Source: Cercospora beticola (taxonomy: Eukaryota > Ascomycota > Dothideomycetes > Mycosphaerellales > Mycosphaerellaceae). From it: a DNA stretch of 64,000 bases. Under the pieces are notes generated by a model. That model searched no databases. It was not told the origin of the DNA and worked only from the letters and a program-made list of their open reading frames with translations. Positions within the stretch are counted from its first letter, which is position 1; each line of letters starts with the position of its first letter. The stretch covers positions 4,092,001 to 4,156,000 of the forward strand of contig NC_088936.1 in NCBI RefSeq assembly GCF_033473495.1, given 5' to 3'. The position numbers were made by a program, and so were the translations under genes. Positions 28,391 to 42,244 of the stretch are shown one piece after another.

Positions 28391-30296
28391 ATGGCAAGTG
28401 TACGCATCGTTGAACTCGGCCCTCGAGATGGCCTGCAAAACGTCAAGCCTTCCATACCGTCAAGCACCAAGTTGGCCCTTATTGAAAGGCTCCACGATGC
28501 AGGTCTGCAGCGAATCGAAGTCACTTCAGTGGTGAGCCCTCGAGCAGTTCCCCAACTCGCCGATTGCGAGACCATACTGGCCAATGCAAACGTTCAGAAG
28601 CTCCTGTCGAATCCGCACCTTCGCACGCCCATTCTGATCCCTAATCTCAAGGGGTTGGATGTGGCGCTGCGTCACAGTGTCAAAGAGGTTGCTGTCTTTG
28701 TCAGCGCCTCAGAAGGCTTCAGTAGAGCCAATATCAGATGCAGCGTGCAAGAAGGGTTGGATCGCGCTCGAGCTGTTACAGAGAAGGCTCGCACCAATGG
28801 ACTCGAAGTTCGTGGGTGAGTAGAAAACAGACGGATCACCTCTCCGAAATTTGGCATATTCAATACAATTTGCACCACATTGGATCGCTGACTAGAAATG
28901 CAGATACATCTCATGCGTATTCGCCTGCCCATTCGATGGCCCAACGCCTCACACTGCAGTACTGAACTGTGTGCACCAGCTGCTCGACATGGGCTGCTAC
29001 GAGATCAGCTTGGGCGACACGATCGGCGTCGGAGTGCCAACGGAAACGAAAGCCCTGACACACTCTCTGATCGATGCTGGCATCCCCATCGAGAAGCTGG
29101 CAGGTCACTTTCACGATACATATGGGCAAGCCATAGCGAACATGTGGGCTGCCTACCACTGTGGAATGCGCGTCTTCGACAGCAGCGTTGGCGGGCTGGG
29201 AGGTTGCCCATATGCTCCCGGCGCCAAAGGCAATCTAGCAACGGAGGATCTCGTGTACACTCTGGAGCGGGCAGGCATCTCGACCGGTGTCGACCTTTCA
29301 AAGCTGGTTGACACTGGCGTGTGGATCACCGAGCAACTCGGCATACCGAATTCCAGTCGAGCGGGAGCGGCCCTTTATAGCAAAGCGCAGACTGCTGAGC
29401 AACGTGCTGGCGCAACAGTAATAACTGCTAAACCCCCTCTGCCCTGGACACTACAGCCTGATTCTGGAGATCTCGAGCTGTACAGGCAAGGTCCGAACTT
29501 GAAGTTGGTTCTGAAAAGACCGCGTAATGGCAATGCTTTGAATGCGTCGATGATCTCACGTCTCACGCAAGTGTTCGAGGATGCGGCTGCCGACCGCTCC
29601 ATCACTCGCATCGTCATCACGGCGAATGGTAAATACTTCTGCACTGGAATGGACCTGAGTCGTGACAACTCGCCAGTAGCACAAGAGGGCACTTCTGCCT
29701 CGGACGCACAGTATGATCGATTAATGCGTCTCTTCGAAGCTATCGACAACGCACCACAAGTCACGATTGCCTGCATCCAGGGCCCTGCGTTTGGCGGCGG
29801 TGTAGGACTTGCTTTGGTTTGCGATATCCGCTTGATGGCCGCGAATGCTAGTCTCAGACTCAGCGAAGTCCGACTCGGTCTGGCTCCTGCTACTATTTCC
29901 AAATATGTCGTCCGGGAGTTGGGAATCTCTTTCTCTCGCGAGATGATGCTTTCCGCACGTCCAGTCTCTGCGCAGGAGCTCTTACAACTTGGCGTGATCG
30001 CAGAAATCATACCAGCGAACGAGCAGCCTAGCTCGGCAATCGACAAGTACCTGGGTCAATTGCAAGCGTGTGCACCAAGAGCTTCGACTTTGAGCAAAGA
30101 GCTTGTGAGATTGGGTTGGAAGCATGCAGGAGACGAGGTGCATGTCAGAGGGGTGAAGAATATTTTCACTGAAATGATGGGCCACAAGAGTGAGTCGGCT
30201 CATGGGCTGGCACAGTTTCAGAAGGGCATGAAAGATGTCGACTGGGATGCGTATACGTTGTCGAAGGCGAAGGCGAAGGCGAAGCCACGATTGTAG
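28391..30296 (+). CDS. Fused HMG-CoA lyase / methylglutaconyl-CoA hydratase-like protein
   Basis: Exons are 28391-28815 and 28904-30296 (88-bp intron); 605 aa. Residues about 4-300 are a complete HMG-CoA lyase: RIVELGPRDGLQ, GCYEISLGDTIGVG, the metal/active-site motif HFHDTYGQ near 211, and GLGGCPYAPGAKGNLATED with the catalytic Cys near 243. After a 35-residue linker a full enoyl-CoA-hydratase domain runs from about 335 to 585. Its GGGVGLALVCDIR and LSEVRLGLAPATIS motifs are typical of LiuC/AtuE-type hydratases. The two activities are consecutive: hydration of the glutaconyl-CoA, then cleavage to acetyl-CoA plus a 3-oxo acid. The chosen ATG starts directly at the catalytic domain with no mitochondrial presequence; an in-frame ATG at 28211 would add 60 residues of unlikely composition. 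The C-terminus is KPRL, a weak PTS1-like end. It is the first gene of the cluster. Confidence 0.9.
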
Positions 30297-30449
30297 ACTG
30301 AGACTTGCTGAATACAATCTCTCGCTTGAACTATCAATACTGTTTCATTCCTCACCGTACGAGGACCCATAAGGCGTGAAAATGCAATGCAACATATGGT
30401 CACTCATTCTGCCATGAAGTGCCCTTCACCAAGCATGGCAGATTGTAAA

Positions 30450-39475: not shown

Positions 39476-39886
39476 GTGAGTGCAGTTTGGTGGAAGAAGA
39501 GCAATGCTCGGATAAGGGATGGAATGGCCCGTTCCGTTCTCAATGAAGGTTGATGGGGCGGGTCGTGAATTAATTGACGACCTCAAGACCACTTCAGCTC
39601 CCACTTCTGTCTTTCGTCCTCGCCCAACACAACACGGATGTGATATATGAAAACGCATTCTAGCCCCGTGGAGACCATTCTTCGAAACTCTGATTCTTCA
39701 GTTCTTCTCCTCCTTCTGTTCCAGCTAACGCCTCGATTGCCGTATGTCCAGGCCTCTGACGTGACTGGACGTGGCAATGCGGCTGTGGCAAACAACCAGC
39801 GCTACCCCACCTCTGCCTCCGCCATACTAGATCTGTGAAGCCTCGCAACAGCCTGGCCACTCTGTCTTCACTTCTGCCGTTCGAAC
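39476..39886. promoter_or_regulatory. Promoter of the cluster Zn2Cys6 gene
   Basis: A 411-bp gap between two plus-strand genes. No inverted CGG triplet of the kind seen in the other cluster promoters was found. Nothing else is recognised. Confidence 0.35.
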
Positions 39887-42244
39887 ATGTCGCGTAACGG
39901 CGAGCCGGAGGCTAAGCGTGTTCGCCAAGCATGTCTGAACTGCAGGTGTGTCAGAATCCCCTCACCGGGCACGACAGATGCAGCCATGTCAACGGTGAAG
40001 GTTGAGGCTACGAGGATATTGTATTGATGATGATAACAGGAGGAAGAAAACACGCTGCCCGGGTGAGCGCCCGGCGTGTGCATTCTGCGTGCGGCTAGGT
40101 CAGGCATGTCGCTACGCAGATGCGCCATCTGCCGCAACCATCTCCGTGCAACATGCTGTGGAAAAGGACTTCGCTGCAGCACATTCGTCCCTTAATACTG
40201 GCAGCTCCTTCCAAGCCATAAGTTTCCCGTCCGCTATTGGAGAGTCGAGTACGCCTTTTGCCTACGGCAATGGACAGTGGGAAGGCGATCCCGAGGAAAC
40301 CGAACGCCCCATGCCGGTGCCACAGCGTTTGCCGCAGGCAATGGAGTCATCAAGTCCGATCTTGCATACTGTCTCTCGTGATATTGCCAACCAAGCGGCG
40401 GACCGCGCCACACGGTGAGGCCATCTTGTTTCTGAATCTCGAAGGCATCGCGCGTGACTAATGGATGGCGTGCAGCTTCGAAGAACGACCACCGGAACAT
40501 GTCATTGCCAAACTAACAGACGTGTACTTCTCGAATTGCCAAAACCAGCCATATTGCTTGTTCCACGAGGCTAACATGCGTCGACGGCTTCAGATCGGCG
40601 ATCTGCCAGAACATCTGCTGCTTGCATTCGCTGCAACTGCTGCACGTTATAGCCGAGACGATTATTTCAAACCGGACCCACTGGTGGCGGTCGCAAGCTA
40701 TGCAAAGAAGTCATGGGCTATCCTCAAGAACCGAGTGCTTGACGGCGATCCTTGCACCGATCTTGACAGTGTGCAAGCCCCAGTCCTGCTTGCGATCATA
40801 GACTTCGTTGGTAAGTCCCGGACTTTAGATGTTCAAGGCTTGTGCACCAGCATTTGAGCTGACAGTCTGGCTTTTAGCTGGCCGACCGCGACAGGGCTGG
40901 GTCAAAACTGGCTTGGCCATTCGGTTTGTGCAAGATCTGAAGCTCAACGCAGAGCCTGACGCATCCATACCAGTCTGGCAGCAAGAAGAACGCCGGCGAG
41001 TCTTCTGGTCGGTATATTTATTGGATAGCTTCTTCGCTTGCGGTCGGAGTTGGCCCGTCTCTATTGTCGACTCTGACTGCACCGTCAGACTCCCCTGTGT
41101 TGAGGAATCGTTCCGTTTGGGATCACATCGAAATGATGCGCCTACCTTGGCTGTCTTGGACAAACCATGGCAGTCAGAGACAGCACAGTCACTCGACAAC
41201 TTTGCCATCTCGGCACTCACGGCTTCATTGCTCGGGCGTACCGTGAAGATTTCGTCCTTGGAGGACATCCCCACAGTGCCATGCTGGGATCCACAGAGCG
41301 GATTCGCGAAGCTCAGTAGTCTGCTCATGAGTTTTGAAAGCAGACATGCCACAGGGTCCGAGAACCCGACTCAACACATCAACGAGCTCTATGGCACTTA
41401 CGAAGGCTATGACCGGCAGCGAGTCGGTTCCTTCGTATGGGCCCGAAGTCTGTACCACTTTTGTGGTGCCCTACTTTATCGGCCTAGTCACTTATACAAT
41501 CATCGTTGGCGCTGGGGCAACATTTTTCCCCCAAGCTTTGCCAGAGATGGTTTGGATCGCTGCCAACGGCACTGTGCGCAGCTTACTGACGTTCTGAAGA
41601 CAGTGCAACACACCGGATGTTGCGCTCGTGGAAGCTCACTAGGTTACATTGCAGCTTGCATTGCTTCTATTCACAAGTTGTTCCTGCACTCACCAGATGA
41701 GAACACAGTGACCAAGGCAGCTGAAGGTTTGGAGACATGCCTGAAGTTCTTGGAGCACTCTCATCAGAATTGGGCCCATCTCAAGCCAATGGTAAGCGAC
41801 TCACCCGAGCTCACAACTTGCACACTCCCTTCATGTCCCGCACGTTGATTCACATGCGTCATCGATTTGTGCTGAGCGGTAAGACAGAAACTGGCTATCA
41901 ACGAGTTCAACATCGACCCAGCACTCGCGCGACTTCTTGTTGATTCGACACTCCCCGCGACGATCGAAATGGACAAAGCTCAGCGCGACATCCTTGAATT
42001 TGTGCTCGACTACGTATGGCTGAGTGATGTCACCCGTGCACCTGCTTCGGCGATACCTCCATCTGACTCCAGTCTCAACCAAGGAGACTGGAATTCTTTG
42101 CTGAACTTTGACGGGCTTCTGTCACCTGTGAACTTCGTAGGCGGAGATCTCAGCCCGGAAATGTCACAACACCGCAGTCAGGAGGGACTTGACGACACAG
42201 CGGGTTTGCTTTCTGGACATGATCAAATCACAATGGCTTGCTAG
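39887..42244 (+). CDS. Zn2Cys6 transcription factor with fungal-specific domain (probable cluster regulator)
   Basis: Five exons: 39887-39945, 40040-40414, 40476-40810, 40878-41791 and 41888-42244 (introns 94, 61, 67, 96 bp); 679 aa. The first intron splits the zinc cluster. Joined, it reads CLNCRRKKTRC, PACAFC and GQAC, i.e. C-x2-C-x6-C-x6-C-x2-C-x6-C at about residues 16-43, preceded by the basic AKRVRQ. The fungal-specific transcription factor domain follows, with GRPRQGWVKTGLAIRFVQDLKLN and EERRRVFWSVYLLDSFFACGRSWP. The C-terminus is acidic and Ser-rich and may activate transcription. It lies downstream of the dehydrogenase in the same orientation and closes the cluster, so control of the five enzyme genes is the likely role (inference). 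Confidence 0.88.

What the first reader, a model, noticed from the sequence alone, without database searches (positions are those of the whole stretch)
28391..42244. Six-gene cluster for complete degradation of a branched-chain (isovaleryl- or isoprenoid-type) acid
Seen: an acyl-CoA synthetase, an isovaleryl-type acyl-CoA dehydrogenase, both subunits of a biotin-dependent carboxylase, a fused hydratase plus HMG-CoA lyase, and a Zn2Cys6 regulator, all contiguous. Known: these activities in this order are the leucine/isovalerate (Liu) and acyclic terpene (Atu) routes of bacteria. Inferred: the cluster takes a free branched acid all the way to acetyl-CoA plus a 3-oxo acid. The presence of the ligase and a dedicated regulator suggests use of an external or lipid-derived acid rather than housekeeping leucine breakdown. 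Novelty is not verified.
Basis: partly seen in the sequence, partly recalled or inferred. Interest (0 to 1): 0.85.

Follow-up and report, generated by a model that had tools for sequence, protein, structure and literature searches.

The report
Fungal peroxisomal branched-acid degradation gene cluster
Six neighbouring genes in the beet leaf-spot fungus Cercospora beticola look like a peroxisomal pathway for breaking down bulky branched, terpene-like acids, separate from the fungus's ordinary leucine-breakdown enzymes in the mitochondria.

Summary
The six genes are real (28391-42244); the genome is Cercospora beticola. It also holds a standard MCC-beta, MCC-alpha, IVD and HMG-CoA lyase set with mitochondrial-type N-termini, so this is not the housekeeping leucine set. 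Two unreported features change the reading. (1) The carboxyltransferase has the published geranyl-CoA-carboxylase (GCC) signature: no pocket Phe, no 3-residue insert. So have 121 of 121 fungal rows aligned; MCC rows 0 of 9. Close bacterial relatives lie near AtuA in 71 of 82 loci and near HMG-CoA lyase in 0; eight bacterial MCC loci show 0 and 5. (2) Four of five enzymes end in PTS1-like tripeptides; so do 115 of 120 listed beta and 117 of 120 listed lyase-hydratase homologs, but 0 of 120 alpha homologs. Best reading: a peroxisomal, Atu-like route that removes the beta-methyl branch of an acyl-CoA larger than 3-methylcrotonyl-CoA. Substrate and location are inferred; deep tree placement is open. 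The dehydrogenase is not an IVD ortholog.

The parts
28391..30296 (+). HMG-CoA-lyase/enoyl-CoA-hydratase fusion, exons 28391-28815 and 28904-30296, 605 aa
   Evidence: Model; lyase model PRK05692 372.5 bits, cut-off 246; all 120 listed homologs carry both PF00682 and PF00378
30285..30293 (+). C-terminal PRL codons of the fusion (PTS1-like)
   Evidence: homologs AKL 63, SKL 17, ARL 16, PKL 11, PRL 7 of 120
30450..32400 (-). Acyl-CoA synthetase (AMP-binding ligase), 5 exons, 570 aa, ends in PRL
   Evidence: general AMP-binding relatives
32776..34763 (+). Carboxyltransferase beta subunit, 7 exons, 540 aa
33505..33531 (+). GCC-type pocket signature IFHKGGQLF; the Gly at the MCC Phe191 site is codon 33517-33519
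34752..34760 (+). C-terminal ARL codons of beta (PTS1-like)
   Evidence: ARI 61, ARM 32, ARL 22 of 120 homologs
35294..37727 (-). Biotin carboxylase/biotin carrier alpha subunit, 2 exons, 789 aa; no PTS1 or MTS seen
35393..35401 (-). MKM codons of the biotin attachment site
   Evidence: role of the motif from general knowledge
38020..39475 (+). Acyl-CoA dehydrogenase, 4 exons, 423 aa, ends in SKL (codons 39464-39472)
39887..42244 (+). Zn2Cys6 / Fungal_trans regulator
   Evidence: splicing by eye

Best explanation
The cluster encodes a peroxisomal, Atu-like 'branch removal' pathway for a free 3-methyl-branched acid larger than isovalerate, most likely an isoprenoid-type acid. The ligase makes the acyl-CoA; the dehydrogenase makes the 3-methyl-2-enoyl-CoA; the alpha/beta carboxylase carboxylates the 3-methyl group, its pocket opened by Gly in place of Phe; the hydratase domain adds water; the lyase domain splits off the two-carbon branch and leaves a 3-oxo product for beta-oxidation. 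The Zn2Cys6 protein is presumably the regulator. Shown from sequence: enzyme classes, pocket signature, PTS1-like ends, a separate standard leucine set, conserved grouping. Inferred: substrate, order of reactions, actual peroxisomal location, import of alpha as a passenger of beta, regulator target.
For: Published guide (PMC4673880; passages and sections 8 and 9 seen): MCC-beta has a pocket Phe and a 3-residue insert before it, GCC-beta has Gly and no insert; exchanging the residue changes substrate preference. Window: Gly, no insert. Of 121 fungal rows 121 lack the insert (108 Gly, 9 Ala, 4 Thr); MCC rows 9 of 9 have Phe and insert, this fungus's own MCC included; bacterial relatives 81 of 81 and GCC rows 4 of 4 have Gly, no insert. 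The N-domain fragment's best PDB hit is GCC 5ikl. Bacterial relatives: AtuA in 71 of 82 loci, HMG-CoA lyase in 0 of 82; control MCC loci of eight of the same genomes: AtuA 0 of 8, lyase 5 of 8. PTS1-like ends: beta 115/120, fusion 117/120, alpha 0/120 of listed homologs; -ARL, -AKL, -PKL are stated to be functional (PMC3709128, passages). The window clade joined with the fungal MCC alone is rejected (AU p = 2.7e-5). LiuE, an HMG-CoA lyase, is listed as acting also on the isohexenyl compound (PMC4097962, passages).
Against: No localisation, activity or growth data. Alpha has no targeting signal. Tree: fungal clade with all MCC (AU p 0.119) or with proteobacterial GCC (p 0.216) is not rejected, and in the best tree proteobacterial GCC joins MCC (96/97), not the window clade. 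The signature does not name a substrate, and lack of the insert may be ancestral. Over the whole subunit MCC- and AccD-type chains score slightly above GCC in the PDB. AtuA is not in the cluster. In 62 of the 82 bacterial loci a neighbouring dehydrogenase matches the IVD query better than the window dehydrogenase. ARI (61 of 120 beta homologs) and PRL are less canonical PTS1s (recalled). Of 117 fusion homologs with the start motif 21 have extensions over 25 aa, 17 of them basic and possibly mitochondrial; NCBI's C. beticola fusion model starts upstream and is named mitochondrial. The second fusion L004, 40% identical in the hydratase, has an MTS-like start and also ends in AKL.
Confidence: 0.58

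Rival explanations
1. A second leucine/isovalerate pathway: the carboxylase still works on 3-methylcrotonyl-CoA, in peroxisomes or cytosol, and the ligase feeds in free isovalerate or 3-methylcrotonate.
For: Reaction types and the HMG-CoA lyase domain fit; tree does not reject the fungal clade with MCC (p 0.119); the hydratase domain is shared with the L004 fusion.
Against: Pocket signature is GCC type; in the 2015 study wild-type GCC was very weak on 3-methylcrotonyl-CoA and MCC F191G essentially inactive on it (PMC4673880, section 8); dehydrogenase is not an IVD ortholog.
Confidence: 0.15
2. The substrate is fungal-made: anhydromevalonate or mevalonate-type acid from spent hydroxamate siderophores, recycled in the peroxisome where the SidI, SidH and SidF enzymes work.
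For: Those enzymes are peroxisomal and handle a 3-methyl-branched acyl-CoA (PMC3709128, passages); the cluster family is widespread in ascomycetes; the pocket would admit more than 3-methylcrotonyl-CoA.
Against: No siderophore gene seen beside the cluster (ORF lists read by eye; four flanking ORFs scanned); a dehydrogenase would not be needed for an already unsaturated acid; nothing ties the bacterial relatives to siderophores.
Confidence: 0.12
3. The C-termini are not working signals and the pathway is cytosolic or mitochondrial.
For: Alpha has no signal; PRL and ARI are weaker; some fusion homologs have basic N-terminal extensions.
Against: Tripeptides conserved in 115 and 117 of 120 listed homologs while alpha, from the same gene cluster, shows 0 of 120; window enzymes lack the basic, acid-poor N-termini of the standard set.
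Confidence: 0.08

Closest known systems
Bacterial Atu pathway (Pseudomonas) and AtuA-linked carboxylase operons of Actinobacteria and Bacteroidetes
   Same: GCC-type pocket signature; ligase, dehydrogenase, alpha/beta carboxylase and hydratase; L035 has beta-alpha-ECH-AtuA-ACAD in a row
   Different: No AtuA in the cluster; an HMG-CoA-lyase-type lyase is fused to the hydratase; PTS1-like ends; beta clade distinct from proteobacterial GCC in the best tree
Leucine/isovalerate (Liu) pathway and the mitochondrial MCC-IVD genes of fungi
   Same: Same reaction types; HMG-CoA lyase domain; this genome has standard MCC-beta and IVD side by side (L025), and tags ATEG_06573, 06574, 06576 suggest the same in A. 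terreus (PMC7842363, passages)
   Different: Carboxylase pocket, dehydrogenase lineage, no MTS, PTS1-like ends
Peroxisomal SidI/SidH/SidF siderophore enzymes of Aspergillus
   Same: Peroxisomal handling of a 3-methyl-branched acyl-CoA (PMC3709128, passages)
   Different: Biosynthetic; no biotin carboxylase or HMG-CoA lyase (recalled)
Fungal acyl-CoA carboxylases of Lombard and Moreira 2011 (PMC3199775, passages)
   Same: They report acyl-CoA carboxylases in fungi beside MCC and ACC
   Different: No function, cluster or location in the passages seen; they state that GCC had only been observed in bacteria

Membership tests
Geranyl-CoA carboxylase (beta subunit) | Gly at the MCC Phe191 site and no 3-residue insert before it | tested here: met
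   The column was identified by human-chain numbering and the paper's description of the insert
Geranyl-CoA carboxylase (beta subunit) | N-terminal helix of about 30 residues (absent in PCC) | tested here: inconclusive
   Alignments to 8j4z, 3u9r and 5ikl start at query residue 8-10, but some MCC/AccD1 chains (4q0g, 9yx0, 8f3d, 8f41) start at 38-46, as the PCC chains do (29-52)
Geranyl-CoA carboxylase (beta subunit) | Groups with proteobacterial GCC in a tree | tested here: inconclusive
   Best tree joins GCC with MCC (96/97); fungal clade plus GCC not rejected, p 0.216
Geranyl-CoA carboxylase (beta subunit) | Carboxylates geranyl-CoA | not testable with these tools
   Needs purified enzyme
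Atu pathway | AtuA beside the carboxylase genes | tested here: not met
   PF07287 matches lie on C5 and C1, none on C2
Atu pathway | AtuE-type hydratase | tested here: inconclusive
   4zu2 (isohexenylglutaconyl-CoA hydratase) 105.8 bits, second after 4k3w 107.7; 3i47 102.1; 5jbw 80.7; 1hzd methylglutaconyl-CoA hydratase 78.2
Atu pathway | Growth on acyclic terpenoid acids | not testable with these tools
   Needs culture work
Liu (leucine/isovalerate) pathway | MCC with pocket Phe and insert | tested here: not met
Liu (leucine/isovalerate) pathway | Isovaleryl-CoA dehydrogenase ortholog | tested here: not met
Liu (leucine/isovalerate) pathway | HMG-CoA lyase | tested here: met
   PRK05692 372.5 bits, cut-off 246; 2ftp 298 bits
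Peroxisomal matrix proteins | Conserved C-terminal PTS1 tripeptide | tested here: met
   Beta and fusion families; ligase and dehydrogenase read in this genome only; alpha has none
Peroxisomal matrix proteins | Observed in peroxisomes | not tested
   No imaging or proteome record of these proteins was looked for beyond the paper searches

The most novel reading that the evidence does not exclude
Filamentous ascomycetes carry a peroxisomal biotin-dependent acyl-CoA carboxylase with a geranyl-CoA-carboxylase-type pocket, imported through the beta subunit's PTS1, at the heart of a peroxisomal pathway that removes beta-methyl branches from isoprenoid acids: a eukaryotic, compartmentalised counterpart of the bacterial acyclic terpene pathway, with a lyase-hydratase fusion in place of AtuA.
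Probability: 0.45. Interest if true: 0.78.

Novelty: new variant of a known kind. Interest (0 to 1): 0.6.

Why it matters
Beta-methyl branches block ordinary beta-oxidation. A gene set for their removal in fungal peroxisomes would give a route by which fungi use terpenoid acids as carbon; a 2014 review says that for a long time no fungus was known to grow on monoterpenes as sole carbon source (PMC4097962, passages). It would place a biotin-dependent acyl-CoA carboxylase in peroxisomes, where none is known to me (recalled), and would correct 'methylcrotonoyl-CoA carboxylase' and 'mitochondrial' labels on many of these fungal proteins (names). An alpha homolog is listed in Aspergillus nidulans FGSC A4 (ANIA_10656, P0342, 52% identity), so a laboratory strain can test it.

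Tried and rejected
Rejected: housekeeping leucine set (a second set exists). Rejected: recent duplicate of the fungal MCC (AU p = 2.7e-5). Rejected: label 'isovaleryl-CoA dehydrogenase'. Not shown: orthology to Pseudomonas-type GCC. Led nowhere: the first tree had an outgroup (L026) with a branch of length 10 and was rebuilt without it; among the NCBIfam models shown only the lyase one passed its cut-off; PDB searches of alpha and ligase did not discriminate.

Paper searches: (ten, the cap). No title or shown start of abstract in these listings describes a peroxisomal biotin carboxylase or a GCC-type pathway in fungi; listings were capped, and most subscription journals and bioRxiv are not held. 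Passages seen in PMC4673880 (plus sections 8 and 9), PMC3199775, PMC7842363, PMC4097962, PMC5595782, PMC13343957, PMC3709128; every other paper in listings only. Recalled, not looked up: a 1999 report of geranoyl-CoA carboxylase in maize; the A. nidulans mcc/ivd cluster; dual targeting of human HMG-CoA lyase; that 2ftp is P. aeruginosa LiuE, 4zu2 P. aeruginosa AtuE and 5jbw Myxococcus LiuC; class names of the fungi.
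Full report
WHAT IS THERE. The window lies in a 36.07 Mb, 10-contig genome. Gene models: lyase-hydratase fusion 28391-30296 (+), ligase 32400-30450 (-), carboxyltransferase beta 32776-34763 (+), biotin carboxylase alpha 37727-35294 (-), acyl-CoA dehydrogenase 38020-39475 (+), Zn2Cys6 regulator 39887-42244 (+). I read the flanking ORF lists by eye and scanned four ORFs downstream with Pfam: no match, a GFO_IDH_MocA oxidoreductase, a short-chain dehydrogenase (50700-51416) and a weak PDH_C. 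None is plainly part of the pathway; the upstream flank was not scanned.

A SECOND, STANDARD SET EXISTS. Family searches of the own genome and fetched loci show a standard MCC-beta with IVD beside it (L025, C6), an MCC-alpha (L028, C6) and an HMG-CoA lyase (L030, C1). Their first 30 residues hold 4-6 Arg/Lys and 0-1 Asp/Glu, as mitochondrial presequences do; those of the five window enzymes hold 1-5 and 2-5. A second lyase-hydratase fusion (L004, C1) has an MTS-like start and ends in AKL.

THE CARBOXYLASE POCKET. Jurado et al. 2015 (PMC4673880; passages and sections 8 and 9) state that MCC-beta has a Phe in the acyl pocket and a 3-residue insert just before it, that GCC-beta has Gly and no insert, and that exchanging the residue changes substrate preference. 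In PDB alignments the window reads DIF-HK-G-GQLF, GCC 5ikl EIF-VE-G-ARGF, MCC EVF-PDREH-F-GRIF. In an alignment of 215 rows: fungal rows (window plus the 120 listed homologs) Gly 108, Ala 9, Thr 4 of 121, none with the insert; bacterial relatives Gly 81 of 81 (one of the 82 loci, L091, gave no row); GCC rows Gly 4 of 4; MCC rows Phe plus insert 9 of 9, this fungus's L025 included. GCC 5ikl is the best PDB hit for the N-domain fragment (120.6 bits); over the whole subunit five MCC-, PCC-named or AccD-type chains score slightly higher (423.6-435 or 414.5 against 410.4).

NEIGHBOURHOOD OF BACTERIAL RELATIVES. I examined two plasmid loci (H2 and H5 of 749 matching records) and the 80 best genome loci kept of 586 confirmed; identities are 46-50%. 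AtuA lies nearby in 71 of 82, HMG-CoA lyase in 0 of 82. Of the 11 without AtuA, six are contigs under 11 kb. Control: 12 of these genomes were searched with the mitochondrial MCC-beta; eight had a second gene at 60-62% identity, and in those eight loci AtuA is found in 0 and HMG-CoA lyase in 5. Many of the 82 loci are Streptomyces, so they are not independent events. Against a simple picture, in 62 of the 82 loci a neighbouring dehydrogenase matched the IVD query best. L035 has beta, alpha, ECH, AtuA and ACAD in a row; in L065 a beta-keto acid cleavage enzyme stands in AtuA's place.

TREE. With 46 rows the ten fungal window-type rows form a clade (100/100) nearest to five Bacteroidetes rows (95/96; 94/88 without outgroup). 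The fungal MCC joins eight bacterial MCCs (100/99). Joining the window clade with the fungal MCC alone is rejected (AU p = 2.7e-5), so it is an old, separate lineage. Deep order is open: fungal clade with all MCC p = 0.119, with proteobacterial GCC p = 0.216; in the best tree proteobacterial GCC joins MCC, 96/97. I therefore say 'GCC-type pocket', not 'GCC ortholog'.

PEROXISOMAL SIGNALS. Window C-termini: SKL (dehydrogenase), ARL (beta), PRL (fusion), PRL (ligase), IVE (alpha). The homolog lists are the best 120 of 7,999 (beta), 4,560 (fusion) and 7,998 (alpha). The pattern [SACP][KRH][LMI] closes 115 beta, 117 fusion and 0 alpha proteins; the strict pattern [SAC][KRH][LM] closes 54, 99 and 0. 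The misses end GRK, QCK, ARF, LRD, DVD (beta) and VAA, TKL, IKL (fusion). The letters before the fusion's tripeptide vary widely. A paper on peroxisomal siderophore enzymes states that -ARL, -AKL and -PKL are functional (PMC3709128, passages). Against: ARI and PRL are less canonical (recalled); 21 of 117 fusion homologs with the start motif have N-terminal extensions over 25 residues, 17 of them basic, most from one group of similar sequences; NCBI's C. beticola model starts upstream and is named mitochondrial. Alpha may ride in with beta (inference).

OTHER ENZYMES. The dehydrogenase has seven other places at 41-49% identity over 195 or more residues in this genome, while the own IVD is at 31%. 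Among the loci compared its best bacterial match is the dehydrogenase beside a GCC-like carboxylase in Tistrella (38.9%). The lyase domain matches 2ftp best (298 bits); LiuE is listed as acting also on the isohexenyl compound (PMC4097962, passages). The hydratase domain gives 107.7 bits to 4k3w, 105.8 to 4zu2 (isohexenylglutaconyl-CoA hydratase), 102.1 to 3i47, 80.7 to 5jbw and 78.2 to 1hzd; since the L004 hydratase is 40% identical to it, this is weak evidence.

CONSERVATION OF THE CLUSTER. Matching by eye, 23 contig lengths occur in both lists (Dothideomycetes and Eurotiomycetes; class names recalled). Ten of these pairs have numbered locus tags for both genes: nine differ by 2, one by 3, as expected with the ligase between. 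Six of the ten have alpha listed, four next to beta and two at distance 3. Some species found in both lists have different contig lengths (for example Penicillium manginii, P. olsonii, Macrophomina), so linkage is not shown there. In four listed proteins beta and alpha are one model of about 1300 aa, and one A. terreus model joins ligase and fusion; these may be annotation joins.

MECHANISM. Ligase, dehydrogenase, carboxylation of the 3-methyl group, hydration, lyase cleavage, then beta-oxidation. Enzyme classes are shown; order, substrate and place are inferred. Candidate substrates: citronellate/geranate, farnesoate, phytenate, or the siderophore acid anhydromevalonate.

KNOWN OR NEW. Lombard and Moreira 2011 (PMC3199775, passages) found acyl-CoA carboxylases in fungi and wrote that GCC had been observed only in bacteria. 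The ten paper searches (see Tried and rejected) listed no description of this fungal cluster or of a peroxisomal biotin carboxylase. A Histoplasma peroxisome proteome uses one MCC (G217B_7030) as an endogenously biotinylated normaliser (PMC13343957, passages). Verdict: real, conserved, probably mislabelled in databases, a new eukaryotic variant of the Atu/Liu logic.

Noticed in passing
G000 C1:3738125-3739894 (locus L004): A second HMG-CoA-lyase/hydratase fusion with an MTS-like N-terminus and a C-terminal AKL: possible dual mitochondrial and peroxisomal targeting.
   Followed up: partly
G000 C5:3853945 (L115), C5:862766 (L116), C1:3056 kb (L117-L122): AtuA-family (PF07287) genes elsewhere in this fungus; the open frames of L115 and L116 end in ANL and GKL, the C1 match is split into pieces.
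   Followed up: no
L027 (G000 C3:1927-1930 kb): An uninterrupted 1171-aa frame with biotin carboxylase and carboxyltransferase parts; further BC (L029) and CT (L026) genes lie on C8.
   Followed up: no
L065:12456-13358: In a Bacteroidetes gene row otherwise like L035, a beta-keto acid cleavage enzyme (BKACE) stands where AtuA stands in L035.
   Followed up: partly
P0318, P0327, P0331, P0339: Carboxyltransferase and biotin carboxylase predicted as one protein of about 1300 aa, beta first, in three Aspergillus species and Sarocladium strictum; true fusion or annotation join.
   Followed up: partly
L033 (Mycolicibacterium chubuense plasmid pMYCCH.01): GCC-like alpha/beta genes lie near several flavin oxidoreductases, an alpha/beta hydrolase and AtuA, as if for a ring-derived branched acid.
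   Followed up: no
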